NCBI RefSeq assembly: GCF_004664715.2
Contig: NC_051075.1
Location: 28,588,332-28,652,331, forward strand
DNA length: 64,000 bases
Direction of reading: 5' to 3'
Origin: Peromyscus leucopus
Lineage: Eukaryota > Chordata > Mammalia > Rodentia > Cricetidae
Below the pieces are notes generated by a model. The model did no database searches. It saw nothing but the letters and a program-made list of their open reading frames with translations, and was not told where the DNA came from. Numbering within the stretch: the stretch's first letter is position 1; each line of letters begins with the position of its first letter. The position numbers and the translations under genes were made by a program. Of this stretch, positions 3,527-26,345 are shown piece by piece.

Positions 3527-3532
3527 GTCTTT
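3527..3532. other. Provirus 1 target-site duplication, left (GTCTTT)
   Basis: GTCTTT precedes the 5' LTR and recurs at 13325-13330 after the 3' LTR. Six bases is the usual duplication for class II retroviruses. The L1 sequence reads through when one copy and the provirus are removed. Confidence 0.95.
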
Positions 3533-3899
3533 TGCTGTGGGACGGTCTATATGTCAAATTGCTCTGATTGGTCAATAAATAAAACACTGGTTGGCCAGTG
3601 GCCAGGCAGGAAGTAGGTGGGACAAGGAGAGAGGAGAATTGTGGGAAGCAGAAGGCTGAGGCAGAGAGACACTGCAGCCACCGCCAGGAGAAGCAGCATG
3701 TGAAGACGCCGGTAAGCCACCAGCCACGTGGCAAGGTATAGATTTATAGAAATGGGTTAATTTAAGATAAAAGAACAATTAGCAAGAAGCCTGCCACGGC
3801 CATACAGTTTATAAGTGATAAGCGTCTGAGTGATTATTTTATAAGTGGATTGTGGGACTGCGGGGCTTGGGGAACCTGGAGAGAAGCCCTCCAGCAACA
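3533..3899 (+). mobile_element. Provirus 1 5' LTR (family A, 367 bp)
   Basis: It runs from TGCTGTGGGACGG to CCAGCAACA. It matches 12956-13324 except for a missing TA near 3822 and ACA for GCA at the end. Landmarks are a GGTCAATAAATAAAACACTGG block near the left edge, TTGGCCAGTGGCCAGGCAGG, and a T/A-rich GTATAGATTTATAGAAATGGG that could supply the core promoter. Relatives are at 16981, 58858 and 59850. Confidence 0.95.
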
Positions 3900-3901
3900 A
3901 A

Positions 3902-3915
3902 TGGCGCCCAACGTG
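3902..3915 (+). promoter_or_regulatory. Primer binding site 1 (tRNA-Lys type, partial)
   Basis: TGGCGCCCAACGTG follows the LTR after two bases (AA). It matches the first 14 of the 18 bases complementary to the tRNA-Lys(1,2) 3' end, then diverges to ACAAGAATCC exactly as in provirus 2. So the LTR is A-type but the PBS is that of the B family. Confidence 0.88.
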
Positions 3916-4270
3916 ACAAGAATCCATTAAAAACTGCTTGGCTTGGCGGCAGGTCCGCTTTCCCGCAAGGGCGGCAGGCACGCGGCGGCACGCGGCGGCC
4001 GGCGGCGATCGGCTTCTTAGTCCGAGCAGCAGCTTCTTAGCCTGGGTCTAGTTCTGCTTGACCTCAGGCTGGACTATCGGTGAGCTTCTTGCTTAAATCC
4101 TGCTTGCTTAAAGCCGGTGCTACAAACAACTCAGAGTTGCCCTGCCGAACAGGGCCCTGCCTGTAAAGCCAACGCACATGGTCGGAGCTTAAGGAAGCCA
4201 GACCCAAGCCTTGACTCGGCACAAGAGGGAACACGTGGCTGCATTTAAACTTCAGACAGCTACGCTTTCT

Positions 4271-4271
4271 T

Positions 4272-4303
<32 letters not shown>
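4271..4303 (+). repeat. (CT)n tract in leader
   Basis: Alternating CT of about 33 bp. Provirus 2 has a longer CT tract at the same place, so it is a family trait rather than a chance microsatellite. Confidence 0.9.
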
Positions 4304-4311
<8 letters not shown>

Positions 4312-4384
4312 TGGATTTACACCTGGGACACTAGGTGGCTGCTTTGAAAATCCCCTCGGATTTCTACTGTTCTACGCAGATTTG

Positions 4385-4390
4385 GTAAGT
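4385..4390 (+). promoter_or_regulatory. Putative retroviral splice donor
   Basis: CAGATTTG|GTAAGT lies about 70 bp before gag and is kept unchanged at 18971-18976 in provirus 2. It fits the consensus donor, placed where simple betaretroviruses splice to subgenomic mRNAs. Confidence 0.7.
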
Positions 4391-4456
4391 CATAATATAT
4401 CAGATATTTTAAAGGAAACTATCTAAAAGAGAATTTTTTTCCACATTAAAAAACAA

Positions 4457-5776
4457 ATGGGTTTTATGTGTACATTGGAAGAAAATTGGTTTTTGTTCGA
4501 AATTTTAGGCAGTCTGGCAATGGAACAACTATATAATATTAGTATTGGTGGAATTATGCACCTTATCACTATAACAATCCACATTTTAATATTTAAAAAG
4601 ATAGTCAATTTAAGTGCCAGGATAACAGCTTTAGAAGAACTTGTTAAACCTGTAAAAATTCAGACAGAAGAAATTAACAGTGAAGTTGTTTCAAGTCGGG
4701 ATCATAAGGTTGCAGAAAGAAAGCCTGTTTTCACACAGTCACCCTTAATTTATCCTGTAACCGTACAGCAGATGCCTGATCAAATGGCTACACAAAATAC
4801 TTGGGCTCCAATTGAAATGTTGGATTTAAAAAGGTTTAAGGAGGCAATAGTATCTTATGGCATGCATTCCCCATATGTAAAGCAAATGTTAAACTCTTGG
4901 TCAACATATAATAGGATAGTACCACAGGACTGGCGGGACCTCGCACAAGGTGTTCTGGAACCCAGCCAGAGACTTCAATTTCTGACTTGGTTTAAGGAGG
5001 AAGCTAAAAACATAGAAAAACAATGGAGGGATAAAGTAATACAAGTTTGCCAGGATCAGCTTATGGGCGAAGGCCAATATGCTTCAGCACAAACACAATG
5101 TTTATATGATGTCCAAACCCTAATTTTATGTCGAACGGCAGCCTTGAATGCATGGGACAAAGTTGAGGAACCAGGAAAAAAATCTGAGTCATTTACAAAG
5201 GTGAAGCAAGGCCCAAAAGAGTCTTTTACAGATTTTTTACAAAGACTGGCTTCAGCAGTAAAGAGAATGGTCTCGGATTCAGAAGCTAGTAAGGCAATAA
5301 TTGAATCTTTGGCCTTTGAGAATGCGAATGCAGCATGCAAAAGAATAATCAGGCCATTAAGGGCAAGTTCTGCACCTATGGAAGATTGGATTAGAGAAAC
5401 AATTAATGTTGAAGCTGATGAGCATGATGATACATGGGTAGGAGAAGTAATTTCAAAAGGTTTGAGGAGTGTTAGATGTTTTGGATGTGGAAAGCAAGGA
5501 CATTTGAAAAGGGACTGTAGACAGGTCATTCCCAGAAACAATGTTTCTTCAAGGAACAATGGCAACAGAAGGCCCCTTCCTTCTGGAGTATGCAGAAGGT
5601 GTGGTAAGGGAAAACACTGGACCAACGAATGTAGATCAACAAAGGACAGACAGGGTAATCCTTTGCCTCAGTCTTCGGGAAACTCCCAGAGGGGCCTCGC
5701 GCAGGCCCCCAGTGCAAATCCAGTTCAAACCTTTCCTGCAGCCATAGAGGAAATGCCTGCTCTGGAGAGCGATTAA
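4457..5776 (+). CDS. gag: Provirus 1 Gag polyprotein
   Basis: An intact 439-codon Gag. It starts MGF (Gly-2 allows N-myristoylation) with a good context (A at -3, G at +4). Residues about 33-50 form a hydrophobic segment ending in KK, followed by a short LSARITALEEL heptad stretch. There is no matrix-sized domain. Capsid begins near residue 105 (NTWAPIEMLDLKRFKEAIV) and has the major homology region QGPKESFTDFLQRL. Two CX2CX4HX4C zinc knuckles follow (CFGCGKQGHLKRDC and CRRCGKGKHWTNEC), giving nucleocapsid. It ends with TAA at 5774. The G GGA AAC site at 5677 lies in its frame, so some ribosomes would move into pro-pol. It is collinear with Gag of provirus 2, which lacks about eight residues near position 65. 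Confidence 0.93.
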   Translation: MGFMCTLEENWFLFEILGSLAMEQLYNISIGGIMHLITITIHILIFKKIVNLSARITALEELVKPVKIQTEEINSEVVSSRDHKVAERKPVFTQSPLIYPVTVQQMPDQMATQNTWAPIEMLDLKRFKEAIVSYGMHSPYVKQMLNSWSTYNRIVPQDWRDLAQGVLEPSQRLQFLTWFKEEAKNIEKQWRDKVIQVCQDQLMGEGQYASAQTQCLYDVQTLILCRTAALNAWDKVEEPGKKSESFTKVKQGPKESFTDFLQRLASAVKRMVSDSEASKAIIESLAFENANAACKRIIRPLRASSAPMEDWIRETINVEADEHDDTWVGEVISKGLRSVRCFGCGKQGHLKRDCRQVIPRNNVSSRNNGNRRPLPSGVCRRCGKGKHWTNECRSTKDRQGNPLPQSSGNSQRGLAQAPSANPVQTFPAAIEEMPALESD

Positions 5777-7812
5777 ATAACCAAATGCCTATTGGAATAA
5801 ATCATGCTGGTCAGGATGATGAAACAGAGAGAATAGAAAATTCAGGAGAAAACATAAAGAAAATTTTTTGGCAAACTTCTATTAATGAACAAAGACCAAA
5901 ATTAACAATAAAAATAAATGGTGTTTTGTTGTCTGGTCTGGTAGACACAGGTGCGGACGTTACCATAATTGCACCAGAATTTTGGCATCCAACTTGGCCT
6001 CTTCAGGAGGTAAACGTTCAACTGTTAGGAATTGGGACATTATCTCATGTGAAACAGAGTGCAAGATGGCTCGAATGTATAGGTCCAGAAGGACAGAGAG
6101 GAAAATTAAAACCATATGTGGCTAACATAACTATGAACCTGTGGGGTCGAGACTTGTTGCAACAATGGAATACTCAGATTAACATCCCTCCAATCTCAGA
6201 AACAAATCATAAACTAGCACATGTTACTGAGAGAAATATTAGAAGATATTGTTCTAATGAGTGGTCACCAGCCATCCATATTATACAAGAACAGGGCACA
6301 ATAACTGATGATCTTCCAAAGACACCAACAGCTCTTCCTTTAAAATGGTTAACAGACAAGCCTGTATGGGTCCAGCAATGGCCTTTAACAACAGAGAAAC
6401 TCCAGGCTTTAGAAGAGCTGGTAGAAGAACAGTTAAATGCTCAGCATATTGAAGAATCAACCAGCCCTTGGAATTCTCCTGTATTTGTTATTAAAAAGAA
6501 ATCTGGTAAATGGAGAATGGTAACAGACCTTAGAGCAATTAACAAAGTAATTCAGCCAATGGGCTCTCTACAATCTGGGATGCCTTTGCCTACTCTGTTA
6601 CCAAAAGGATGGCCTCTCATAGTTATTGATTTAAAAGACTGTTTCTTTTCAATACCCTTACAAGAAAAAGACAAAGAAAGATTTGCTTTTACAGTGCCTA
6701 CTTATAATAATTCTCAACCGGTTAAAAGATTTCAATGGAGGGTCCTCCCACAGGGAATGTTGAATAGCCCAACTCTGTGCCAGTATTTTGTGCAACAGCC
6801 ATTGGAAGTGATACATAAAAAATTTTCTAAATCTATAATTTATCATTATATGGATGATATTTTACTAGCTGACTCAAATGCAGATACTTTAGAAATAATG
6901 TTTGAAGAAGTAAAGAAAATTTTGCCTTGCTGGGGATTACAAATTGCTCCTGAAAAGATACAAAGAGGAGATTCTATTAATTATTTAGGATATAAAATAG
7001 AGCTACAAAAAATTAGACCCCAAAAAGTGCAAATTCGGAGAGATAGACTACAGACTCTTAATGACTTTCAAAGATTATTTGGAGACATTTCTCATCTACG
7101 AACTATTGTTGGGGTAAAAAATGATGAACTGACTAATTTGTTCAAAACCTTAGAAGGTGACAAGGACTTAAATAGTCCAAGAGAACTATCACCTGAAGCT
7201 GAGAAAGAATTAGCCTTGGTAGAAAAGAAAGTGCATGAAGGACACGTGAATCGTATTGATCCAAAGCTGGATTGCATTTTGGTTATCTTACCTTCTAGGC
7301 GTTCTCCTACTGGAATATTAATGCAGAGGGAAGATATTATATTGGAATGGATATTTTTACCAAATAAACCAAATAAAAAATTAAAAACTTATGTGGAAAA
7401 AATCTCTGACTTGATTTACAAAGGAAAATTGAGACTTCGTCAATTAGCAGGCATAGACCCAGCAGAAATTGTTGTACCATTAACTAAGGAGGACATTGAA
7501 AAATTATGGACAGAAAGTGAACCTTGGCAAAGAGCTTGCAGTAATTTTTTGGGAGAAATTAACAGCAAATATCCCAAAAGCAATAGAATTGATCTTATAA
7601 AGAGAGCTGAATGGATCTTGCCTCGAATTGTACGGCAAAAACCCATATTTGGAGTTCGTACATTTTATACAGATGCCAACAAAGAAGGAAAGGCAGGTTA
7701 CAAATCAGAAAATTTAAGTAAAGTGGTTCAAAGTCCGTATAATTCAGTTCAAAAATCAGAATTGTATGCTATTCTGTTGGTATTAATGGATTTTTCAGAA
7801 CCTCTAACATAG
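5659..7812 (+). pseudogene. pro-pol: Provirus 1 Pro-Pol, first part (protease, RT, partial RNase H)
   Basis: The -1 frame opens at 5659, inside gag; a non-initiating ATG lies at 5785. Counted from that ATG, the aspartic protease active site DTGA is at residues 54-57 and the retropepsin GRDLL near 121. RT has LPQG near 321 and the catalytic YMDD near 355, followed by thumb and connection. RNase H starts with FYTDAN and QKSELY. The frame then stops with TAG at 7810 because one base present in provirus 2 is missing near 7805 (CCTCTAACA against CCTCTCAACA). No second frameshift is needed between pro and pol; they form one frame. dUTPase is absent. The break removes the last RNase H acidic residues and integrase from this product. 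Confidence 0.92.
5677..5709 (+). promoter_or_regulatory. Gag-Pro -1 frameshift signal (slippery site plus hairpin)
   Basis: GGGAAAC at 5677-5683 is phased as G GGA AAC in gag. After a 7-base spacer comes a perfect 7-bp hairpin: GGGGCCT (5691-5697), loop CGCGC, AGGCCCC (5703-5709). The pro frame is -1 to gag and is open from 5659 (after TAA at 5656). The same heptanucleotide is known at the gag-pro junction of Mason-Pfizer/SRV-type betaretroviruses. The hairpin is identical in provirus 2 although the loop differs. Confidence 0.88.
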
Positions 7813-8837
7813 TAACTGACTCTCAGTATGCTGAAAGAGTGGTGTTACATATTGAGACTGCAGAATTTATCCCTGATGCTTCAGAATTAACTTCACTATT
7901 TATTCAATTACAAGATACAATCAGGAAAAGGAATCATCCTTTATATATAACTCACATTCGATCCCATACTGGTCTGCCAGGCCCTCTAGCACAAGGCAAT
8001 GATGAGATTGATAAATTATTGATAGGAAATGTGCTGGAGGCCTCAGAATTTCATAAAAAACATCACGTCAATAGTAAAGGTTTAAAAAAGGATTTTTCCA
8101 TAACCTGGCAACAAGCCAAAGAAATAGTAAAGAAATGTCCTACTTGTTCCTTCTACAATCAGACGCCATTACCAGCAGGATGTAACCCAAAGGGTACTCA
8201 GAGAAATGAGATCTGGCAGATGGACGTGTTTCACTTTGCAGAATTTGGAAAATTGAAATATGTACACCACACTATCGATACTTATTCAGGATTTCAATGG
8301 GCAACTGCTTTGAGTTCTGAAAAAGCTGATTCTGTAATCACTCATTTGCTAGAAGTTATGGCCATCATGGGTATACCTGCACAAATCAAAACTGACAATG
8401 CTCCATCATATGTCTCTGTTAAAATGAAACAGTTTTTTGCTTATTACAATATAAAGCGTATTACAGGCATACCACATAATCCTACAGGTCAAGCAGTTAT
8501 AGAAAGATCAAACAGAACTCTAAAGGATATGCTAAATAAACAGAAATGGGTAACAAAAACCCCCAGAAATAGACTGCATAATGCTCTTCTAACTTTGAAT
8601 TTTCTGAATGCCAATAAGAAAGGAACAACAGCTGCAGAGAGACATTGGATAATAAAAAAAACTACAGAATTAAATCAGCCTATATACTTTAAGGATGTGC
8701 TGACCTCAGAATGGAAACCAGGGTATGTATTACATTGGGGACGGGGTTTTGCTTTTGTTTCTACAGGAGAAGATAAGCTGTGGGTACCATCAAAATTGAT
8801 AAAGGTTCGATTTGAACAAGAGAGACCTCTTAATTGA
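7813..8837 (+). pseudogene. pol: Provirus 1 Pol, second part (RNase H end and integrase), out of frame
   Basis: After the one-base deletion, pol continues in the next frame. The longest ATG-started piece is 7839-8837 (332 codons). It contains the RNase H tail with HIRSHTGLPGP and GNDEIDK, the integrase zinc-binding HKKHH...CPTC, and the catalytic core QMDVFH, KTDNAPSY and VIERSN (the D,D-35-E triad). A C-terminal domain of the GRGFAFVSTGEDKLWVPSKL type follows, ending in TGA at 8835. All catalytic residues are still present, so the lesion is recent. With no frameshift signal here, this part would not be made. Confidence 0.92.
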
Positions 8838-11525
8838 GGAGGTGATAGTTCATCAACCAGCATGAACATCCAATTTAAACTAACTTGTATCAATAACACA
8901 TGCCTTTTCATTTAATCAGATAATAACTTGTCAAAAGGAAACATCCCCAAAATTAGTCTTGGGGAAAGGTTTTTGTTTTTGTCTTTTAGGAGAATGAAGG
9001 TTAAGGAATCTGAAGAACACTGGACAAATGAGACAACTGAAGAAAAGTGACAAATCATCTATCCCAAGAAACAGAGTGAAACGGTGTATGGGTATATATT
9101 ATCTAAAAAAATTTTTATGTCTTCCTAAATGTTTGTTTCTGCTTTTCTCTAAAGATTTAACACTATTGGTCTTCTAACAGTCCCAGTTCAATTAAAATTT
9201 AAAGCTGACTTTGGAGTTGGAGAATGGCTCTCTCCTTCTTTAAAATCAAGCATGTTGTTAAAAGGTAAATGCAAACTCCCTGTATCATGCCAGAATAAGA
9301 GCCATCTTCTGCTATGGTACAGGACAAAAGCAAAATTAATTAAGGGACTATTCTATTACTAATCTCAACTCTTTGATTCTATTCTGATTCTTTAAACTTT
9401 TCTCAAAGTATAAATTTTATATCAAAATTTACAAGATTAATATATATATATACATTTTAAACTTTGTTAAGATATGAATGGTCACATAGAGTACTAACTA
9501 ATTCTAGAAAAAAGGCTAGCTGCATATATATGTTTTTGTGTTCGAGTCTCTTATCAGTTTTCTGCAGGAAATCACGGCCAGGCCTAACATCAACTGAAGT
9601 CTCCAGAAAGAACATGGGGCCCCACAACAACAACAATTCCACGTGGACAATAATAATATCATTAAGCTGACAAACATCATCCACAGATCAGCTTTGAACT
9701 ACAAGGTGCTCAGAGCAATTTTGAGATGACTAGCTGAGATGATCCAGTCTCAAAGACTACTTGAATAAGGACTTGAGATAAACCCTGAACTTTGGCATTA
9801 TACACAGACTGGATAATGAAGGATATAGTTACCTCTCCTAGAATTTGACAATTAACCTAAAATTTTTCTTTCAGGATAAAGAAAACTTCGCCCATACCCA
9901 GCAGGAAGCAATTTTAAGAATACGACGCCCACATTCCCAAAGAGGTGGTGTGGGGCGGGTGGTTTTTTGGTCTTTTTAATGGGTTTTGGGTCTGGGATAA
10001 TTTTCAGTGTTTAGGGGGGTTGGTTACAAGTTATTGTCAAGGGTTAGGAAAAAGGCTAAGCAAAGGAGATTAGATTTAAGGTTCTTGTTTAAAAAAAAAA
10101 AAAGAAAGAAAAGAAAAAGACAATTACTAATTTTAAATACTTTACATTGGATTGGATTGTTTTATATTGTATACAAATTTGAAATTGATATTGTTAGAAA
10201 ATGCTATATGTATATTTCTAATTGTATTTATTCCATCCATTTAACAATGTAATGCAAATTTCTGATCCTTGAATGTTATTATTATCAACTATTAGGATAT
10301 AAAGAAATGAAAGCTAGTAGTTAGACATTATCATAGAACTTGTAGTCATATTAGATATGTTTTAAAATTGAGCAGAGATGTTTTAGACAGGTCATCTTCA
10401 AACCCTTCAGAGATCTACAGAATATGGCATTTAAAATGTTTTAATATCTTAGAAAATTTTTCTTTTTTGAGACATGTCAGCTCCTGGCAGTACTAATCTA
10501 CTTCAGAGAAAATATGGGCATTGAAGAAACTGCATATGGAGTCAACTTTCCTTGTGGCAAAAGTTAGCCACTGGACAACAAAGTATCCTCGAATCAACAG
10601 GACAAAATGGACAGACAGAACACGAAACAAGGGACTACTGATTCTTGCCAAAACAAGTGTGGTTATGGCTTTATCAAAAGGCATCTTCTGAGGCCAGGAC
10701 AATACGGCCCCATCCCTGAAATGGCCTTCGCATCCGGAAAAGGTACGGTGCCCTTTTCTTCAAAGCAGCTTAACAGGCAGAGGGCCGATGGATTCTGTTG
10801 TACAATGGAACAGCAGCTGAAAGCTCATGCCTCTCGAAAGTAGACTGGCATTTAATAGAGGGATGTGGAGAAGAAGGGGATGCTGAGATGAAGCCATATA
10901 TACACAGCCAAGAAGAATGGACAGCTGAAATTAAAAAACTGTCAACAATTTCCAGAATTTAAAATCCTGAATCATGACAGGACACTAGTGGAATTCAGGT
11001 GTTTCTGGTACGTGGACTGCTCTCACCCAATGTGAGGTTGAACTGTTGACCTTGTGTACATCCTTGTGTACATCCTACTTCACAAATGAGTCTGTCAGAT
11101 ACACTAAGCCTATAGGCTGAAGATGATGCCCCAACACTGCGGAGAAACCTCAGGTGACTGCCCAGGCAGCTGGCTGTTTCTGTCAACTCACAAAATTTTT
11201 TGGAAGTTGCTTGCATGCACTTCCTGTTTTTATTTTTGTTAGCTAATATTATTCCCTTCTTGGGTCTCTGAGGGAGTTGAAGATTAGTTAGTTATGGTTG
11301 AAGATTAGTTAGTTATAGTTGAAAATTAATTAGGATAGAAAGTACATTAGATACATCTTGGAATTACCAAAATAGGATAGATAATGGAATTATTTTCTCT
11401 GATTTGTCAAATACCTGTTTAGGTATTTATTACTTGTATATATTGTATATAGTTATTGTACTTTTGTATATAGTTTTTCTTTTGTTAGTTATAACCTTTT
11501 GCTTTTTTTCTTTTTATTAAAATAG
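8838..11525 (+). other. Provirus 1 3' non-coding region (no env)
   Basis: About 2.7 kb between pol and the internal LTR. It is collinear with 23379-25921 of provirus 2 apart from small indels and an extra segment of about 130 bp (10149-10280) that provirus 2 lacks. No env-length frame exists. Conserved items are a TTTTTGTCTTTTAG acceptor-like site (AG 8988-8989) followed by an ATG, a second TTTTTCTTTCAG (AG 9873-9874), and AAGGAGATTAGATTTAAGG near 10064. Fragments may be decayed env, but I cannot show this. Confidence 0.7.
8975..8989 (+). promoter_or_regulatory. Candidate splice acceptor after pol
   Basis: GTTTTTGTCTTTTAG|GAGAATG: a pyrimidine tract, AG, and an ATG four bases later. It is in the position of an env acceptor and is also present at 23515-23529. 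The downstream frame is only 18 codons here. Confidence 0.5.
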
Positions 11526-11536
11526 AAAAGGGGAAA
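11526..11536 (+). promoter_or_regulatory. Polypurine tract of the B-type body
   Basis: AAAAGGGGAAA lies directly against the internal LTR and is identical to 25922-25932 in provirus 2. It is the expected primer for plus-strand DNA. Confidence 0.85.
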
Positions 11537-12036
11537 TGTGGTGGTAATCTAATTGTACTGAAATATTATTTTGATTGTATGTAATAAATAAAGTTGTCTG
11601 GGGGTCAGAGCTATTAGAGCCATAGCAAGAGTGTGGCGGTGGTGGCACATGCCTTTAATCCCATAGATATCTGTGTGTTCAGGGTCAGAGCTATTAGAGC
11701 CATAGCAAGAGTGTGGCGGTGGTGGCACACGCCTTTAATCCCATAAGATCTCTGTGTGTTCAGGGATACAGTCAGCATTGGAGACATATGCCTTTAAGAC
11801 TTAGGGGGCTGTACATTCAGACAGTGACGAGGCAGTCATGTGTTTGGGTTTACAACCAATGAGAAGGCAGAACAACATACTTTAAAAAAACGAACCGACA
11901 GGAGGTAGGTCTCTTTTCGTGAAGCTGGGACAGCAGAAGGAAGGGTGAGATTTAGCTCTGAGCTCTGACCTCTCGGCTTTCTCTTTTACATTGTTTCTGT
12001 GTTCCTTATTTAATAAGACGGTTGGTTACATCTACA
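11537..12036 (+). mobile_element. Internal LTR of family B (500 bp) within provirus 1
   Basis: It runs from TGTGGTGGTAATC to GGTTACATCTACA and is homologous along its length to the 413-bp LTRs of provirus 2 (AATAAATAAAGTTG, GGTCAGAGCTATTAGAGCC, ACCAATGAGAAGGCAGAAC, CTGACCTCTCGGCTTTCTC). The extra length comes mostly from a tandem duplication: 11602-11681 and 11682-11762 repeat the same unit, each holding a B1-like GGTGGCACAYGCCTTTAATCCC. It has no TSD and no partner LTR-B upstream. Confidence 0.9.
11602..11762 (+). repeat. 80-bp tandem duplication inside the internal LTR
   Basis: Two copies begin GGTCAGAGCTATTAGAGCC and end ATCTGTGTGTTCA or CTCTGTGTGTTCA. They differ at only a few bases. Provirus 2 LTRs have a single, shorter version without the B1-like part. 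Confidence 0.9.
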
Positions 12037-12038
12037 TC

Positions 12039-12056
12039 TGGCGCCCAACGTGGGGC
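12039..12056 (+). promoter_or_regulatory. Primer binding site 2 (full tRNA-Lys type)
   Basis: TGGCGCCCAACGTGGGGC, two bases (TC) after the internal LTR, is the full 18-nt complement expected for tRNA-Lys(1,2). It differs after base 14 from PBS 1 and from provirus 2. Confidence 0.92.
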
Positions 12057-12479
12057 AAGAGTTTCCACCTAAAGCCTGAGAAAAGATTCTAAAATGGAGC
12101 TAAAAACAGCTTCCTAATTGTCTCTCTCAAATGAGCAGCAGCTGCCGGTTTGAGTTACTGGCAGGATCCTGGCGTGTGAGCTCAATCTGCAGTATGGCGA
12201 GAATGAGGCCTCTGCAAGTGGCACATTAAGCTGCGTGGTGGATTTAGCCTTTGCTAGTACAAAACAAAAAGAGATTTCTGGGCTACACGCTGCCTTGATA
12301 GAAGCATAGACCCACTATTTCTGAGAGTTGATGGCTCCCAGAGCTGGCAGAAAACGTACCACCGCCATGTTGGGAAGCTGAAGTGGGCGGAGCCAGCAGC
12401 CACAGCACAGTTTCATGCTTAAAAGGCTGCTGATTAAAGCAATAGGCTCAAGGTAATATAAAAAATAAGCCACATAAAG
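12057..12479 (+). other. Second, unrelated leader after PBS 2
   Basis: About 420 bp with no resemblance to the B-family leader. It shows no long frame and no CT tract. By position it is the leader of another element, most simply the LTR-A element. It resembles what a non-autonomous ERV would carry, but no second copy in this window allows a test. Confidence 0.6.
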
Positions 12480-12758
12480 ATGGCTATCACACAGAGAATC
12501 TGGATTATGTTCTCTTTGATATTTGTAACTGAAGAAAAACATTTGATTGCAAAAACTGTTGAGTTATGCCAAAATGTATATTTTAAAGGTACCTTGACTT
12601 CAAAATTTGGATGTAAGGATATGTTGCTTTGGAAAGGAGGCTCTGCTTTTATTTCCACAGAAAGCCAGAGGCTATGGATTTGTTCCAGATTAAGATACAT
12701 CAGGTTTGACCAGCCAAGACCACCTGAAAGGTCTCCGATGACACCATGGCCCAGATGA
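12480..12758 (+). pseudogene. Remnant of a different ERV pol end (integrase C-terminus)
   Basis: A 92-codon frame. From about residue 18 (EEKHLIAKTVELCQNVYFKGTLTSKF) it aligns with the integrase end of the two proviruses. The shared order is YFKxxLTS, then WKGGSAFIST, then LWICSRLRYIRFDQPRPPE. Identity is clearly below that between the two proviruses, so it comes from another lineage. Residues 1-17 (hydrophobic IWIMFSLIFV) do not align. Everything between the leader and this remnant that a full element would carry (gag, pro, RT, integrase core) is missing. Whether the frame is translated is unknown. Confidence 0.75.
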
Positions 12759-12944
12759 TCAAACATCCAGAATCGTTTCAAGTCACGGACTACTCCATGA
12801 TCCTAAAATTTTCTTTGTGTCCCCATAAGATATAGCGACCCCCTCCAGCAGGAAGTAGTAAGAGAAGCTACGCCCAAATTCCCAAATATACCAAGCTGAC
12901 TTTGGAGATGTGTAAAAGTTAAAACCTTCCTTTAAAAAAAAAAA

Positions 12945-12955
12945 GAAAGGGGAAG
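12945..12955 (+). promoter_or_regulatory. Polypurine tract before the 3' LTR-A
   Basis: GAAAGGGGAAG, preceded by an A-rich run, abuts TGCTGTGGG of the 3' LTR. Confidence 0.8.
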
Positions 12956-13324
12956 TGCTGTGGGACGGTCTATATGTCAAATTGCTCTGATTGGTCAATA
13001 AATAAAACACTGGTTGGCCAGTGGCCAGGCAGGAAGTAGGTGGGACAAGGAGAGAGGAGAATTGTGGGAAGCAGAAGGCTGAGGCAGAGAGACACTGCAG
13101 CCACCGCCAGGAGAAGCAGCATGTGAAGACGCCGGTAAGCCACCAGCCACGTGGCAAGGTATAGATTTATAGAAATGGGTTAATTTAAGATAAAAGAACA
13201 ATTAGCAAGAAGCCTGCCACGGCCATACAGTTTATAAGTGATATAAGCGTCTGAGTGATTATTTTATAAGTGGATTGTGGGACTGCGGGGCTTGGGGAAC
13301 CTGGAGAGAAGCCCTCCAGCAGCA
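12956..13324 (+). mobile_element. Provirus 1 3' LTR (family A, 369 bp)
   Basis: TGCTGTGGGACGG to CCAGCAGCA. It matches the 5' LTR except for one substitution and a 2-bp indel. It is followed at once by GTCTTT. Confidence 0.95.
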
Positions 13325-13330
13325 GTCTTT
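13325..13330. other. Provirus 1 target-site duplication, right (GTCTTT)
   Basis: Identical to 3527-3532. The L1 reading resumes with GATCCATTTGGACTTGAG. Confidence 0.95.
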
Positions 13331-18140: not shown

Positions 18141-18553
18141 TATGGTGATATTTTATTTGTACTGAAATGTAATTTTAATTTTATGTTAATAAATAAAGTT
18201 GCCCTGGGGTCAGAGCTATTAGAGCCATAGCAAGAGCATGATGGTTAGAAGAGCTAGGTAGATTTCTGTGTGTTCAGGGATACAGCCAGTATTGGAGACA
18301 TATGCCTTTAAGACCTGGAGGGCAGTACTTACAGGCAGTGATGAGGCAGTCATGTGGTTGGGTTTAGAACCAATGAGAAGGCAGAACAGAAAGACTATTT
18401 AAACATAGACAAACAGGAAGTAGCTCTCTCTCGGGGAAGTTAGGAGCACTGCAGGAGGTAAGATTTTATCTCTGAGCTCTGACCTCTCGGCTTTCTCTCT
18501 TTTACATTGGCTCTGTGTTTTTTATTTTAAAAAAACGATTGGATACATCTACA
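18141..18553 (+). mobile_element. Provirus 2 5' LTR (family B, 413 bp)
   Basis: TATGGTGATATTTT to GATACATCTACA. The first dinucleotide is TA, not TG, in both LTRs. Likely promoter elements are CCAAT (18370-18374) and TATTTAAA (18396-18403). The three differences from the 3' LTR are A for G near 18238 and near 18324, and T for C near 18407; the first two are CpG losses in this copy. Confidence 0.95.
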
Positions 18554-18555
18554 TC

Positions 18556-18569
18556 TGGCGCCCAACGTG
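18556..18569 (+). promoter_or_regulatory. Provirus 2 primer binding site (partial tRNA-Lys match)
   Basis: TGGCGCCCAACGTG then ACAAGAATCC, after a 2-base TC spacer. Only the first 14 bases fit tRNA-Lys(1,2). Confidence 0.88.
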
Positions 18570-18854
18570 ACAAGAATCCATTAAAAACTGCTTGGGGCCG
18601 GCTCCCTAGCCGGAGCAGCCAACTCCCTAGCCCAGGTCTGCTTGGGCTCAGGCTGGACTGTGAGCTGCTTGCTTAAGGCCAGTGCTACAAACAGCTCAGG
18701 CCTGCCCTGCTAAACAGGGCCCCTGCCTGTAGAGCCAAGCCTTGACTCGGCTCAAGAGGGAACAAGTGGCTGGCTTTAAGCTTTAGCCGGCTACCCCTTC
18801 ACTTTCACTTTCGCTTTCTCTCTTGCTTTCTCTCTTGCTTTCTCTCTGTCTCTC

Positions 18855-18901
<47 letters not shown>

Positions 18902-19023
18902 ATTCACACCTAGGACACTAGGTGGCTCTTTTGAAATTCGCTCCGATTTCTACTGTTCTACGCAGATTTGGTAAGTCATAAAGGAAACTATTTAAAAGAC
19001 AATTTTTTTCCACATTTAAAAAA
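18570..19023 (+). other. Provirus 2 leader with long CT tract
   Basis: It contains short GCTCCCTAGC-type repeats, CACTTTC/CTTTCTCT runs and a (CT)n tract (about 18840-18899). The splice donor G|GTAAGT is at 18971-18976 and gag follows. Confidence 0.8.
18971..18976 (+). promoter_or_regulatory. Putative splice donor
   Basis: CAGATTTG|GTAAGT, identical to provirus 1 at 4385. Confidence 0.7.
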
Positions 19024-20319
19024 ATGGGTTTTCTGTGTACATTGGAAGAAAATTGGGTTTTTGAAATTTTAGGCAGTCTGACAATGGAACAGCTATATGA
19101 GAAGATTAATGTTGATCGAATTATGCAGTTTATCACCATGCTTATTCTCATTTTACTATTTAAAAAGATAGTCGATTTAAGTGCCAGGATAACAGCTTTA
19201 GAAAAACCTGTTAATTTTAACAGTGAAGTTGGTTCAAGTCTGGATCATAAGGTTACAGAAAAAAAGCCTGTTTTCACACAGTCACCCTTAATTTATCCTG
19301 TAACCGTACAGCAGATGCCTGATCAAATGGCTACACAAAATACCTGGGCTCCAATTGAAATGTTGGATTTAAAAAGGTTTAAGGAGGCAATAGTATCTTA
19401 TGGCATGCATTCCCCATATGTAAAGCAAATGTTAAACTCTTGGTCAACATATAATAGGATTATACCACAGGACTGGTGGGACCTTGCACAAGCTGTTCTG
19501 GAACCCAGCCAGAGACTTCAATTTCTAACGTGGTTTAAGGAGGAAGCTAGAAACGTAGAACAACAATGGAGGGATAAAGGAATACAAGTTTGTCAGGATC
19601 AGCTTATTGGAGAAGGCCAATATGCTTCAATACAAACACAATGTTTATATGATGTTCAAACCCTAATTTTATGTCAAATGGCAGCCTTGAATGCATGGGA
19701 CAGAGTTGAGGAACCAGGAAAAAAACCTGAGTCATTCACAAAGGTTATGCAAGGCCCAAAAGAATCTTTCACAGATTTTTTAGAAAGACTGGCTTCAGCA
19801 GTAAACAGAATGGTCTCAGGATCAGAAGCTAGTAAGGCAATAATTGAAGCTTTGGCATTTGAGAATGCGAATGCAGCATGCAAAAGAATAATCAGGCCAT
19901 TAAGGGCAAGATCTGCACCTTTGGAAGATTGGATTAGAGAAACAATTAATGTTGAGGTTGATGAGTATGATGATACTTGGGTAGGAGAAGTAATTTCAAA
20001 AGGTTTGAGGAGTGCTAGATGTTTTGGGTGTGGAAAGCAAGGACATTTGAAAAGGGACTGTAAACAGGTCATTCCTAGAAGCAATGTTTCTTCAAGGAAC
20101 AATGGCAACAGAATGCCCCTTCCTTCTGGAGTATGCAGAAGGTGTGGTAAGGGAAAACACTGGACCAACGAATGTAGATCAACAAAGGACAGACAGGGTA
20201 ATCCTTTGCCTCAGTTTTCGGGAAACTCCCGGAGGGGCCTCATGCAGGCCCCCATAGCAAAACCAGTTCAAACCTTTCCTGCAGCTGTAGAGGAAATGCC
20301 TGCTCTGGAGAGCGATTAA
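19024..20319 (+). CDS. gag: Provirus 2 Gag polyprotein (intact)
   Basis: 431 codons starting MGF, with a possible myristoyl glycine. Residues 33-46 (IMQFITMLILILLF) are a strongly hydrophobic segment followed by KK, then LSARITALEK. The N-terminal region before capsid is only about 105 residues, so there is no normal matrix fold. Capsid covers about 106-327 with the major homology region at 243-256 (QGPKESFTDFLERL). Zinc knuckles of the CX2CX4HX4C type are at 333-346 and 371-384, in a basic nucleocapsid. No PPxY or PTAP late motif is visible. It ends TAA at 20317. The slippery site lies at codons GGA-AAC (20221-20226), 30 codons before the stop. Expected role: virus-like particle assembly and RNA packaging; the N-terminal segment suggests membrane insertion (inference). 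Confidence 0.95.
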   Translation: MGFLCTLEENWVFEILGSLTMEQLYEKINVDRIMQFITMLILILLFKKIVDLSARITALEKPVNFNSEVGSSLDHKVTEKKPVFTQSPLIYPVTVQQMPDQMATQNTWAPIEMLDLKRFKEAIVSYGMHSPYVKQMLNSWSTYNRIIPQDWWDLAQAVLEPSQRLQFLTWFKEEARNVEQQWRDKGIQVCQDQLIGEGQYASIQTQCLYDVQTLILCQMAALNAWDRVEEPGKKPESFTKVMQGPKESFTDFLERLASAVNRMVSGSEASKAIIEALAFENANAACKRIIRPLRARSAPLEDWIRETINVEVDEYDDTWVGEVISKGLRSARCFGCGKQGHLKRDCKQVIPRSNVSSRNNGNRMPLPSGVCRRCGKGKHWTNECRSTKDRQGNPLPQFSGNSRRGLMQAPIAKPVQTFPAAVEEMPALESD

Positions 20320-23300
20320 ATAACCAAATGACTATTGGAATAAATCATGCTGGTCAGGATAATGAAACAGAGAGAATAGAAAATTCAGGAGAAAACATAA
20401 AGAAAATTTTTTGGCAAACTTCTATTAATGAACAGAGACCAAAATTAACGATAAAAATAAATGGTGTTTTGTTGTCTGGTCTGGTAGACACAGGTGCGGA
20501 CATTACCATAATTGCACCAGAATTTTGGCATCCAGCTTGGCCTCTTCAGGAGGTAAACGTTCAATTGTTAGGAATTGGGACATTATCTGGAGTGAAACAG
20601 AGTGCAAGATGGCTGGAATGTATAGGTCCAGAAGGACAGAGAGGAAAATTAAAACCATATGTGGCTAACATAGCTATGAACCTGTGGGGTCGAGACTTGT
20701 TGCAACAATGGAATACTCAGATTAACATCCCTCCAATCTCAGAAACAAATCATAAACTAGCACATGTTTCTGAGAGAAATATTAGAAGGCATTATTTTGA
20801 GTGGTCACCAGCCATCCATATTATACAAGAACAGGGCACAACAACTGATAATCTTCCAAAAATACCAACAGCTCTACCTTTAAAATGGTTAACAGACAAG
20901 CCTGTATGGGTTCAGCAATGGCCTTTAACAACAGAGAAACTCCAGGCTTTAGAAGAGCTGGTAGAAGAACAGCTAAATGCTCAGCATATTGAACAGTCAA
21001 CCAGCCCTTGGAATTCTCCTGTATTTGTTATTAAAAAGAAATCTGGTAAATGGAGAATGGTAACAGACCTTAGAGCAATTAACAAAGTAATTCAGCCGAT
21101 GGGCTCTCTACAATCTGGAATTCCTTTGCCTACTCTGTTACCAAAAGGATGGCCTCTCATAGTTATTGATTTAAAAGACTGTTTCTTTTCAATACCCTTA
21201 CAAGAAAAAGACAAAGAAAGATTTGCTTTTACAGTGCCTACTTATAATAATTCTCAACCGGTTAAAAGATTTCAATGGAGGGTCCTCCCACAGGGAATGT
21301 TAAATAGCCCAACTCTGTGCCAATATTTTGTACAACAGCCATTGGAAGTGATACGTAAAAAATTTCCTAAATCTATAATTTATCATTATATGGATGATAT
21401 TTTATTAGCTGACTCAAATGCAGATACTTTAGAAAGAATGTTTGAAGAAGTAAAGAAAATTTTGCCTTGCTGGGGATTACAAATTGCTCCTGAAAAAATA
21501 CAAAGAGGAGATTCTATTAATTATTTAGGATATAAAATAGAGCTGCAAAAAATTAGACCCCAAAAGGTGCAAATTAGGAGAGATAGACTACAGACTCTTA
21601 ATGAGTTTCAAAGATTATTTGGAGATATTTCTCACCTACGAACTATTGTTGGGGTAAAAAATGATGAACTGACTAATTTGTTCAAAACCTTAGAAGGTGA
21701 CAAGGACTTAAATAGTCCAAGAGAATTATCACCTGAAGCTGAGAAAGAATTGGCCTTGGTAGAAAAGAAAGTACATGAAGGGCATGTGGATCGTATTGAT
21801 CCAAAGCTGGATTGCATTTTGGTTATTTTACCTTCTAGGCATTCCCCTACTGGAATATTAATGCAGAGGGAGGATATTATATTGGAATGGATATTTTTAC
21901 CAAATAAACCAAATAAAAAATTAAAAACTTATGGGGAAAAAATCTCTGACTTGATTTGGAAAGGAAAATTGAGACTTCGTCAATTAGCAGGCATAGACCC
22001 AGCAGAAATTGTCGTACCTTTAACTAAGGAGGACATTGAAAAATTATGGACAGAAAGTGAACCTTGGCAAAGAGCTTGCAGTAATTTTTTGGGAGAAATT
22101 AACAGCAAATATCCCAAAAGCAACAGAATTGATTTTATAAAGAGAGCTGATTGGATCTTGCCTCGAATTGTACGGCAAAAACCCATATCTGGAGTTCGTA
22201 CATTTTATACAGATGCCAACAAACAAGGAAAGGCAGGTTACAAATCAGAAAATTTAAGTAAAGTGGTACAAAGTCCTTATAATTCAGTGCAAAAATCAGA
22301 ATTGTATGCTATTATGCTGGTATTAATGGATTTTTCAGAACCTCTCAACATAGTAACTGACTCTCAGTATGCTGAAAGAGTGGTATTACATATTGAGACT
22401 GCAGAATTTATCCCTGATGCTTCAGAATTAACTTCACTATTTATTCAATTACAAGATACAATCAGGAAAAGGAGTCATCCTTTATATATAACTCACATCC
22501 GATCTCATACTGGTCTGCCAGGCCCTTTAGCACAAGGCAATGATGAGATTGATAAATTATTGATAGGAAATGTGCTGGAGGCCTCAGAATTTCATAAAAA
22601 ACATCATGTCAATAGTAAAGGTTTAAAAAAGGATTTTTCCATAACCTGGCAACAAGCCAAAGAAATAGTAAAGAAATGTCCTACTTGTTCCTTCTATAAT
22701 CAAACGCCATTACCAGCAGGATGTAACCCAAAGGGTACTCAGAGGAATGAAATCTGGCAGATGGACGTGTTTCACATTGCAGAATTTGGAAAATTGAAAT
22801 ATGTACACCACACCATCGATACTTTTTCAGGATTTCAATGGGCAACTGCTCTGAGTTCTGAAAAAGCTGATTCTGTAATCACTCATTTGCTAGAAGTTAT
22901 GGCCATCATGGGTATACCTGCACAAATCAAAACTGACAATGCTCCATCATATGTCTCTGTTAAAATGAAACAGTTTTTTGATTATTACAAAATAAAGCAT
23001 ATTACAGGTATACCACATAATCCTACAGGTCAAGCAGTTATAGAAAGATCAAACAGAACTCTAAAGGATATGCTAAATAAACAGAAAGGAGTAACAAAAA
23101 CCCCCAGAAATAGACTGCACAATGCTCTATTAACTTTGAATTTTCTGAATGCCAATGAGAAAGGAACAACAGCTGCAGAGAGACATTGGATAATAGAAAA
23201 AACTACAGAATTAAATCAGCCTATATACTTTAAGGATGTGCTGACCTCAGAATGGAAACCAGGGTATGTATTACGTTGGGGACGAGGTTTTGCTTTTGTT

Positions 23301-23378
23301 TCTACAGGAGAAGATAAGCTGTGGGTACCATCAAAATTGATAAAGGTTCGATTTGAAGAAGATAAACCTCTTAATTAG
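20202..23378 (+). CDS. pro-pol: Provirus 2 Pro-Pol polyprotein (intact)
   Basis: One open frame, -1 to gag, entered by frameshifting. The first ATG is at 20328 and 1016 codons follow; numbering is from there. Protease: DTGA 54-57, GRDLL 121-125. Reverse transcriptase: D281 in VIDLKDCF, LPQG 320-323, YMDD 354-357. RNase H: D629, E658, D678, D739 and HIRSHTG near 723. Integrase: H756/H760 and C784/C787 (zinc-binding), D813, D870, E906 (an exact D,D-35-E triad), and a C-terminal domain ending LWVPSKLIKVRFEEDK. All catalytic residues are present and there is no stop or frameshift. Protease and polymerase share one frame, unlike betaretroviruses with separate pro and pol frames. dUTPase is absent. 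Role: protein processing, cDNA synthesis and integration. Confidence 0.95.
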   Translation, partial: SFASVFGKLPEGPHAGPHSKTSSNLSCSCRGNACSGERLNNQMTIGINHAGQDNETERIENSGENIKKIFWQTSINEQRPKLTIKINGVLLSGLVDTGADITIIAPEFWHPAWPLQEVNVQLLGIGTLSGVKQSARWLECIGPEGQRGKLKPYVANIAMNLWGRDLLQQWNTQINIPPISETNHKLAHVSERNIRRHYFEWSPAIHIIQEQGTTTDNLPKIPTALPLKWLTDKPVWVQQWPLTTEKLQALEELVEEQLNAQHIEQSTSPWNSPVFVIKKKSGKWRMVTDLRAINKVIQPMGSLQSGIPLPTLLPKGWPLIVIDLKDCFFSIPLQEKDKERFAFTVPTYNNSQPVKRFQWRVLPQGMLNSPTLCQYFVQQPLEVIRKKFPKSIIYHYMDDILLADSNADTLERMFEEVKKILPCWGLQIAPEKIQRGDSINYLGYKIELQKIRPQKVQIRRDRLQTLNEFQRLFGDISHLRTIVGVKNDELTNLFKTLEGDKDLNSPRELSPEAEKELALVEKKVHEGHVDRIDPKLDCILVILPSRHSPTGILMQREDIILEWIFLPNKPNKKLKTYGEKISDLIWKGKLRLRQLAGIDPAEIVVPLTKEDIEKLWTESEPWQRACSNFLGEINSKYPKSNRIDFIKRADWILPRIVRQKPISGVRTFYTDANKQGKAGYKSENLSKVVQSPYNSVQKSELYAIMLVLMDFSEPLNIVTDSQYAERVVLHIETAEFIPDASELTSLFIQLQDTIRKRSHPLYITHIRSHTGLPGPLAQGNDEIDKLLIGNVLEASEFHKKHHVNSKGLKKDFSITWQQAKEIVKKCPTCSFYNQTPLPAGCNPKGTQRNEIWQMDVFHIAEFGKLKYVHHTIDTFSGFQWATALSSEKADSVITHLLEVMAIMGIPAQIKTDNAPSYVSVKMKQFFDYYKIKHITGIPHNPTGQAVIERSNRTLKDMLNKQKGVTKTPRNRLHNALLTLNFLNANEKGTTAAERHWIIEKTTELNQPIYFKDVLTSEWKPGYVLRWGRGFAFVSTGEDKLWVPSKLIKVRFEEDKPLN
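20220..20252 (+). promoter_or_regulatory. Gag-Pro -1 frameshift signal
   Basis: G GGA AAC at 20220-20226 in gag phase. A 7-base spacer is followed by hairpin GGGGCCT (20234-20240), loop CATGC, AGGCCCC (20246-20252). The pro frame is open from 20202, after TAA at 20199, giving an overlap of about 118 bases with gag. Confidence 0.9.
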
Positions 23379-25921: not shown

Positions 25922-25932
25922 AAAAGGGGAAA
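25922..25932 (+). promoter_or_regulatory. Provirus 2 polypurine tract
   Basis: AAAAGGGGAAA directly before the 3' LTR. Confidence 0.88.
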
Positions 25933-26345
25933 TATGGTGATATTTTATTTGTACTGAAATGTAATTTTAATTTTATGTTAATAAATAAAGTTGCCCTGGG
26001 GTCAGAGCTATTAGAGCCATAGCAAGAGCGTGATGGTTAGAAGAGCTAGGTAGATTTCTGTGTGTTCAGGGATACAGCCAGTATTGGAGACATATGCCTT
26101 TAAGACCTGGAGGGCGGTACTTACAGGCAGTGATGAGGCAGTCATGTGGTTGGGTTTAGAACCAATGAGAAGGCAGAACAGAAAGACTATTTAAACACAG
26201 ACAAACAGGAAGTAGCTCTCTCTCGGGGAAGTTAGGAGCACTGCAGGAGGTAAGATTTTATCTCTGAGCTCTGACCTCTCGGCTTTCTCTCTTTTACATT
26301 GGCTCTGTGTTTTTTATTTTAAAAAAACGATTGGATACATCTACA
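25933..26345 (+). mobile_element. Provirus 2 3' LTR (family B, 413 bp)
   Basis: TATGGTGATATTTT to GATACATCTACA; 410 of 413 positions equal the 5' LTR. Confidence 0.95.

What the first reader, a model, noticed from the sequence alone, without database searches (positions are those of the whole stretch)
3533..13324. Provirus 1 is a chimera of two ERV families carrying an internal LTR and two primer binding sites
Seen: LTR-A, PBS, a body collinear with provirus 2 (which has LTR-B), polypurine tract, one LTR-B, a second and full PBS, a foreign leader, a foreign integrase-end remnant, polypurine tract, LTR-A. Outer LTRs are nearly identical and the 6-bp duplication is perfect. Inference: the whole 9.8-kb composite was reverse-transcribed and integrated as one unit. 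A non-autonomous LTR-A element may thus have captured an entire gag-pro-pol of another family. I know of no described element with this order.
Basis: partly seen in the sequence, partly recalled or inferred. Interest (0 to 1): 0.88.

Follow-up and report, generated by a model that had tools for sequence, protein, structure and literature searches.

The report
Primer-site chimera of two endogenous retroelements
A 9.8-kb insertion in a rodent genome (likely a deer mouse) holds a coding retrovirus-like element joined into a short non-coding one exactly at the site where copying starts, and at least ten simpler hybrids of the same two elements, with mismatched ends and the footprint of a single insertion, lie elsewhere in that genome, likely because the copying enzyme jumped between two different elements packed in one particle.

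Summary
In detail: LTR-A, PBS, B-family gag-pro-pol body, one LTR-B, a full PBS, A-family interior, LTR-A, with a perfect 6-bp target duplication and nearly identical outer LTRs. The 'foreign' leader and integrase end are the interior of a short (~1.65 kb) non-coding A element with at least 40 copies. Both A/B joins lie at the PBS. The window's own genome showed more. Elements with 5' LTR-B and 3' LTR-A recur: 10 of 11 tested carry perfect, different 6-bp duplications. One further locus is LTR-B, B, LTR-B, A, LTR-A with a perfect duplication; another is a deleted LTR-A-to-LTR-B element. The best single explanation is transfer of plus-strand DNA between co-packaged A and B cDNAs through their shared PBS: one jump gives the hybrids, two jumps the window's element. 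No second copy of the window's order was found in capped genome searches, so it looks like a one-off, not a mobile composite family. Precedents are template-switch complexes in cereals and recKoRV in koalas: a new variant of a known kind, with good natural evidence for intermolecular plus-strand transfer.

The parts
3527..3532 (.). target-site duplication, left copy (GTCTTT)
3533..3899 (+). 5' LTR-A (367 nt)
3900..3901 (+). A-type spacer AA (AA in 28 of 30 A loci opened)
3902..3915 (+). PBS 1, 14-nt core shared by A and B; join 1 lies here
   Evidence: census: 34 of 40 hits stop at 3911-3915, 2 of 40 start at 3902
3916..4426 (+). B-type leader; the 40 nt 3902-3941 are identical to provirus 2
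4427..5776 (+). B gag, open from stop to stop (449 codons)
5659..8837 (+). B pro-pol, broken by one frame change (open 5659-7812 and 7743-8837)
8838..11525 (+). B region after pol; no env family in the short open frames tested (four from here, two from the same region of provirus 2)
11526..11536 (+). B polypurine tract
11537..12036 (+). inner LTR-B (500 nt, with an internal 80-nt repeat)
12037..12038 (+). B-type spacer TC
12039..12056 (+). PBS 2, full 18-nt complement of tRNA-Lys1,2; join 2 lies here
   Evidence: PBS sequence in PMC8775094 and PMC1084362 (passages)
12057..12460 (+). A leader
12480..12758 (+). short A open frame, integrase-end remnant
12759..12955 (+). A 3' region ending in the A polypurine tract
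12956..13324 (+). 3' LTR-A (369 nt)
13325..13330 (.). target-site duplication, right copy (GTCTTT)
18141..26345 (+). provirus 2: ordinary B element with two LTR-Bs and duplication GATGTA (comparison)

Best explanation
The window's element is an A element that carries a whole B unit (interior plus one LTR-B) at its primer-binding site, and it was likely made in one reverse-transcription event in which plus-strand DNA jumped from A to B and back to A through the PBS that both families share. Inferred steps: B (autonomous, mysTR-like) particles package one A RNA and one B RNA, and both are copied into minus-strand DNA. The plus strand started at the A polypurine tract copies LTR-A and PBS and anneals to the B minus strand. 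It runs through B, LTR-B and 18 nt of the tRNA still attached, then anneals again by its new PBS to the A minus strand and finishes in LTR-A. Integrase inserts the 9.8-kb DNA once and makes the 6-bp duplication. Shown: the anatomy, the positions of the joins, the duplications, and elsewhere in the genome the structures that one such jump would leave.
For: (1) Perfect duplication and near-identical outer LTRs. (2) Join 1 is bracketed to 12-14 nt: 34 of 40 scored genome hits stop at 3911-3915 and 2 of 40 start at 3902. (3) LTR-A and LTR-B share no exact word over 10 nt, so transfer through R is unlikely, while the PBS core gives 14. (4) Structures expected from one jump exist. All 12 loci opened (of 40) from the join-2 census carry LTR-B 5' and LTR-A 3'; of the 10 with two LTRs, 9 could be tested and 8 have perfect duplications. 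C7 and C19 add two more perfect ones; in both, the two LTRs show no similarity to each other. (5) C8 is LTR-B, B, LTR-B, A, LTR-A with perfect TTTTAG (middle of the body not fetched). (6) C17 is LTR-A joined to a deleted B ending in an LTR-B tail, with CCACGT/CCATGT read by eye. (7) Of 15 LTR-B/A joins, 7 of the 8 with the B spacer TC carry the exact tRNA PBS, against 1 of 5 with the A spacer AA (Fisher p 0.03) and 4 of 27 ordinary A elements (p 0.0003), as expected if the plus strand copied the tRNA. The test was chosen after seeing the pattern. (8) LTR-B and A divergences are uncorrelated over 14 joins (r 0.04, p 0.40), as for separate events.
Against: Several joins (C7, C17, some AA cases) lie a few bases upstream of the PBS, at the LTR end, and need a heteroduplex repaired the other way. 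L064 has both spacers and C19 a damaged PBS. L059 has no duplication, and C15 has a 44-nt one with a cut-off 5' end. The reciprocal join (LTR-A to B) is rare: the window and C17 clearly, C22 arguably. A swap at the 3' side also exists at least once (C13:38235646), and the second 3'-side control did not complete. 26 of the 40 join-2 hits were not opened. Co-packaging was not observed. A minus-strand route fits the window's element equally well; it is the one-jump hybrids that favour the plus strand.
Confidence: 0.72

Rival explanations
1. Minus-strand route: minus-strand DNA made on A RNA reads into the PBS, switches to the 5' PBS of a B RNA, copies U5 and R of B, jumps to the 3' R of B, copies the B body to its PBS, and the A plus-strand strong-stop DNA then closes the molecule.
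For: Gives the same order and the same joins for the window's element; intermolecular minus-strand transfer is documented (PMC3187697, passages).
Against: It does not readily give the two-LTR hybrids, whose 5' end is the exact start of LTR-B, expected of a strand primed at the B polypurine tract (inference). It does not predict the link of the TC spacer with the exact tRNA PBS.
Confidence: 0.15
2. DNA-level recombination: a one-LTR B circle, or a neighbouring B provirus, recombined at the PBS into an A provirus that was already integrated.
For: Would also keep the A duplication and the matching A LTRs; one-LTR circles are discussed as a source of tandems in plants (PMC11899658, Discussion read).
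Against: Only 14 nt are shared at the join. It cannot readily make the LTR-B/A/LTR-A hybrids, where the outer LTRs differ yet the duplication is perfect in 10 of 11 tested.
Confidence: 0.06
3. Hybrid or composite lineage: LTR-B/A/LTR-A (and the composite) is a mobile family that copies itself, and the window's element includes such a member.
For: The join-2 sequence is common (40 of 40 scored hits span it); recKoRV, with an internal foreign LTR, is at 15 loci of one assembly, variants included (PMC5696478, passages).
Against: An RNA with different R at its two ends should not complete reverse transcription normally, and new copies should have matching LTRs (inference). The joins differ in kind (TC, AA, TCAA, TA spacers; several PBS forms), and LTR-B and A divergence are uncorrelated. 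Only 40 hits were scored, so subfamilies may be hidden.
Confidence: 0.06
4. Assembly error joining repeats.
For: Both families are high-copy repeats.
Against: No N in the window; join 1 sits on 14 shared nt, short for a false overlap; perfect duplications at other hybrid loci.
Confidence: 0.01

Closest known systems
Template-switch complex LTR retrotransposons of cereals (Sabot and Schulman 2007, PMC1950507)
   Same: Three LTRs, two interiors, one target duplication, outer LTRs alike, explained by switching between co-packaged RNAs (sections 3-5 read).
   Different: There the units are closely related and the switch is through homologous R regions, giving chimeric LTRs; here the families share no R homology that I could find, the LTRs are pure, and the joins are at the PBS.
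recKoRV1 (KoRV x PhER) of koalas (PMC5696478 passages; PMC11703332 passages)
   Same: A mammalian two-family composite with an internal foreign LTR between two LTRs of the other family.
   Different: Its joins are in gag and env (7-11 nt microhomology reported at 5' junctions), the captured part is non-coding, there is no whole second unit, and it is mobile at many loci.
mysTR-related ERVK elements and their non-autonomous partners in deer mouse (PMC10089650, section 7 read; passages)
   Same: B looks like the autonomous mysTR type (gag and pro-pol, no env). A looks like a non-autonomous partner that keeps the end of pol and the region after it.
   Different: The section and passages I read describe no heterologous-LTR hybrids or three-LTR composites.
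HERV mosaics (Vargiu 2016, PMC4724089 passages)
   Same: Recombinant and internal-LTR chains are common in human ERVs.
   Different: There an internal unrelated LTR is taken as secondary integration; here it is part of one insertion.

Membership tests
Template-switch complex (cereal type) | three LTRs around two interiors | tested here: met
Template-switch complex (cereal type) | flanking target duplication | tested here: met
   GTCTTT
Template-switch complex (cereal type) | outer LTRs highly alike | tested here: met
   365 of 366 aligned bases plus one 2-nt indel; not met at C8, whose outer LTRs are B and A
Template-switch complex (cereal type) | switch through homologous R, chimeric LTRs, closely related units | tested here: not met
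   longest word shared by LTR-A and inner LTR-B is 10 nt; the inner LTR matches B over its whole length
Complex made by DNA recombination of neighbours | no target duplication, chimeric inner LTR | tested here: not met
Nested insertion of B into A | two LTR-Bs and a B duplication inside A | tested here: not met
   one inner LTR-B, followed by the B spacer and PBS
recKoRV-like mobile composite | same composite at several loci | tested here: not met
   the order LTR-A/B/LTR-B/A/LTR-A was seen only in the window among the hits (capped at 40 scored); C8 and C15 carry join 2 behind B sequence but not join 1
mysTR (B) | rodent ERVK with gag and pro-pol and without env | tested here: met
   gag, RVP, RT, RNase H and integrase families; no env family in six short frames after pol; gag 98% to an unnamed record and 88% to a Peromyscus californicus protein
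mysTR (B) | about 90% identity to the published mysTR pro-pol record | not tested
   the record was not available in the tools

The most novel reading that the evidence does not exclude
In this genome a coding ERV and its non-coding passenger routinely swap plus-strand DNA through a shared primer-binding site, leaving a whole series of single-insertion products: LTR-B/A/LTR-A, LTR-A/B/LTR-B, LTR-B/B/LTR-B/A/LTR-A, and the two-jump LTR-A/B/LTR-B/A/LTR-A. Proviruses with two unrelated LTRs would be a natural class, and a direct fossil record of intermolecular plus-strand transfer.
Probability: 0.6. Interest if true: 0.75.

Novelty: new variant of a known kind. Interest (0 to 1): 0.63.

Why it matters
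ERV LTRs are taken to be identical upon insertion (stated in PMC10089650), and that rule is used to date insertions and to call chimeras. Here single insertions carry unrelated LTRs at their two ends, so LTR-pair dating and 'secondary integration' labels would go wrong for them. If the mechanism holds, the second (plus-strand) transfer of reverse transcription, usually drawn within one molecule (recalled), can be studied from natural products by the dozen, with the spacer and PBS recording which strand was kept. It also shows how a non-coding passenger can come to carry its helper's genes.

Tried and rejected
Rejected: nested insertion (one inner LTR-B with its own spacer and PBS); recombination between neighbours (duplication present); R-mediated switching (no R homology); a third source for the leader and integrase remnant (they are the A interior). 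My early view that join 2 was a rare event like join 1 was wrong: 40 of 40 scored hits span it.

Led nowhere: Rfam and tRNA scans (nothing); four viral-contig scans (no confirmed relative); a protein search with a frame across join 1 (none at E 0.01); Pfam on a 1.5-kb stretch (nothing); literature search for an internal LTR with PBS switching in ERVs (0 papers). One search gave two below-cut-off Pfam hits in short frames after pol (COX15-CtaA, PfNDH2 insertion), which I take as chance. The 3'-side swap control was half done: B 3' end to LTR-A gave 2 loci, reversed control 0, one of them clear and one A-like by eye and not opened; A 3' end to LTR-B did not complete. The C13 swap locus lacks an intact 5' end. 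Whole-genome counts are lower bounds, because the tool scores only 40 candidates.
Full report
OBSERVATION. LTR-A (3533-3899 and 12956-13324) differs between its two copies by one substitution and one 2-nt indel, and the flanks are GTCTTT on both sides. Between them lie: spacer AA; a PBS matching tRNA-Lys1,2 at 14 of 18 positions; a B body collinear with provirus 2 (94.5% over 5.9 kb, then 88.8% over 1.45 kb); a PPT; one LTR-B (11537-12036); spacer TC; a PBS matching at 18 of 18 (PBS sequence from passages of PMC8775094 and PMC1084362); a leader; a short integrase-end frame; a PPT; LTR-A. The B gag frame is open; pro-pol is interrupted by one frame change, whereas provirus 2's is open. Domains are gag p24 and zinc knuckles, protease, RT, RNase H and integrase; no env family was found in six short frames after pol. 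dN/dS between the two B copies is 0.56 for gag and about 0.2 for pro-RT and integrase pieces, so B has been a coding family.

HOST. The gag protein is 98% identical to an unnamed record and 88% to a Peromyscus californicus protein, so the host is likely a Peromyscus. In deer mouse, autonomous mysTR-related ERVKs and many non-autonomous partners that share the region after pol are described (PMC10089650, section 7 read). B fits the former and A the latter; that assignment is by description, since I could not align to the published mysTR record.

THE A ELEMENT. It gave 40 scored matches, each covering at least 909 of 917 bases and the window's own among them, of 5,465 first-look candidates. Of the 30 loci opened (the window's included), 27 have LTR-A upstream, 2 have LTR-B (window and C7), and 1 has neither. 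The spacer is AA in 28, TC in 1 (window) and TA in 1. A 6-bp duplication was found in 21 of 24 tested loci; the three misses are L033, L038 and the window's own entry, a formal miss because its upstream flank is B body. So A is a short non-coding element of about 1.65 kb, and the window's composite is a whole A element with a whole one-LTR B unit at its PBS.

JOIN 1. A 316-base query across LTR-A/PBS/B leader was run over the genome: 40 of 2,011 candidates were scored. Three span it at length (the window; C22, 1-284; C17, 1-223), one reaches base 177, 34 stop at 162-166 (window 3911-3915), and 2 start at 153 (window 3902). Ordinary A copies thus end, and ordinary B copies begin, inside the PBS core. 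A pattern search (38 bases, up to 3 mismatches) gave 4 loci, reversed control 0. C22 is an A element with a B-type leader, LTR-A at both ends and duplication CTGGTC. C14 is an A relative with another leader and no duplication. C17 is LTR-A, TC, B PBS and 57 nt of B leader, a deletion, then the tail of LTR-B, with CCACGT/CCATGT by eye. None repeats the window's order.

JOIN 2 AND THE HYBRIDS. The same census across LTR-B/PBS/A leader gave 40 of 40 scored hits (of 4,838 candidates) spanning the join at 89-100%. Two of these, the window and C7, I already held. I opened 12 more, 11 from the top of the list plus C3, which I chose because one search had shown LTR-A beside it; 26 were not opened. All 12 have LTR-B 5' and LTR-A 3'. 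Ten are two-LTR hybrids: one could not be tested (LTR-B cut), 8 have perfect and different 6-bp duplications, 1 has none (L059). C7 and C19, found earlier, add CCACAG and GCCAGG; in each, the two LTRs show no similarity to each other. The other two of the 12 have B sequence upstream. C8 has LTR-B, B leader and the start of gag at its 5' end, then the B 3' end, LTR-B, A interior and LTR-A, with TTTTAG on both sides (the middle of its body was not fetched). C15 starts inside the B region after pol and has a 44-nt host duplication, an aberrant end.

MECHANISM. In reverse transcription the plus strand starts at the PPT, copies U3-R-U5 and part of the tRNA, and moves by that PBS to the minus strand (established; passages of PMC3187697). 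A DNA that begins exactly at the start of LTR-B and ends exactly at the end of LTR-A pairs a plus strand primed on B with a minus strand primed on A (inference). One such move gives LTR-B/A/LTR-A. If the B plus strand has first run its whole length, it gives LTR-B/B/LTR-B/A/LTR-A (C8). A move from A to B gives LTR-A/B/LTR-B (C17, deleted). Two moves, A to B to A, give the window. The joins also record the strand: among 15 LTR-B/A joins (12 opened, C7, C19, window), 8 have the B spacer TC and 7 of these have the exact tRNA PBS (not C19); 5 have AA and 1 of these has it; two have other spacers, TCAA with an A-type PBS and TA with the exact one. Ordinary A elements have the exact PBS in 4 of 27. 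The Fisher values are 0.03 and 0.0003 (post hoc). LTR-A and LTR-B share at most 10 nt, so the R-to-R switch proposed for cereals is unlikely here.

INDEPENDENT EVENTS OR ONE LINEAGE. Over 14 joins (12 opened, C7, window; C19 left out) the pairwise divergence of the last 300 nt of LTR-B and of the A interior is uncorrelated (Mantel r 0.04, p 0.40). The joins are of several kinds, and the duplications differ. This favours many separate events, but n is small and LTR divergence after insertion adds noise.

COMPARISON. The nearest relatives are the cereal template-switch complexes (PMC1950507) and, in mammals, recKoRV1 (PMC5696478 passages). I made ten literature searches. Those aimed at this point listed no paper whose title or abstract start names PBS-joined or heterologous-LTR ERVs; they cover open-licence PMC only, and most listed papers were not opened.

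LIMITS. The genome tool answered 6 of 46 requests and scores only 40 hits each, so counts are lower bounds. I could not test allele states, packaging, or the full 3'-side control. The route (plus or minus strand) for the window's element itself is inferred from its sister structures.

Noticed in passing
window 12480-12758: The integrase-end remnant of A is an open frame. Seven database proteins of 82-114 aa share its short form, most of them with a similar start (44-69% identity), which may mean a kept small protein; the search admits only proteins of similar length and databases hold only open frames, so this is biased.
   Followed up: partly
L072 (C15:38685201-38688600) and L065: A 5'-truncated B/LTR-B/A/LTR-A insertion flanked by a 44-nt host duplication: an aberrant integration with one proper LTR end.
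   Followed up: partly
L049 (C22:2143500-2146700): An A element whose first ~340 nt of leader are B-type, with LTR-A at both ends and a perfect duplication CTGGTC: an A/B leader recombinant.
   Followed up: partly
window 3902-3919 and 18556-18573: Both B copies keep a PBS tail that does not match tRNA-Lys1,2 beyond 14 nt, although tRNA copying should overwrite it; another tRNA or strand bias is possible.
   Followed up: no
window 11537-12036: The inner LTR-B is about 79% identical to provirus 2's LTR-B while the bodies are 94.5% identical, and it carries an ~80-nt repeat that also shows in L058, L059, L061 and L062 among the 12 opened hybrids.
   Followed up: partly
window 18141 and 25933: Both LTRs of provirus 2 begin TATGG, not TG.
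   Followed up: no
C13:38235646: A B 3' region joined at the polypurine tract to an LTR-A variant: a 3'-side swap, 5' end not found.
   Followed up: partly
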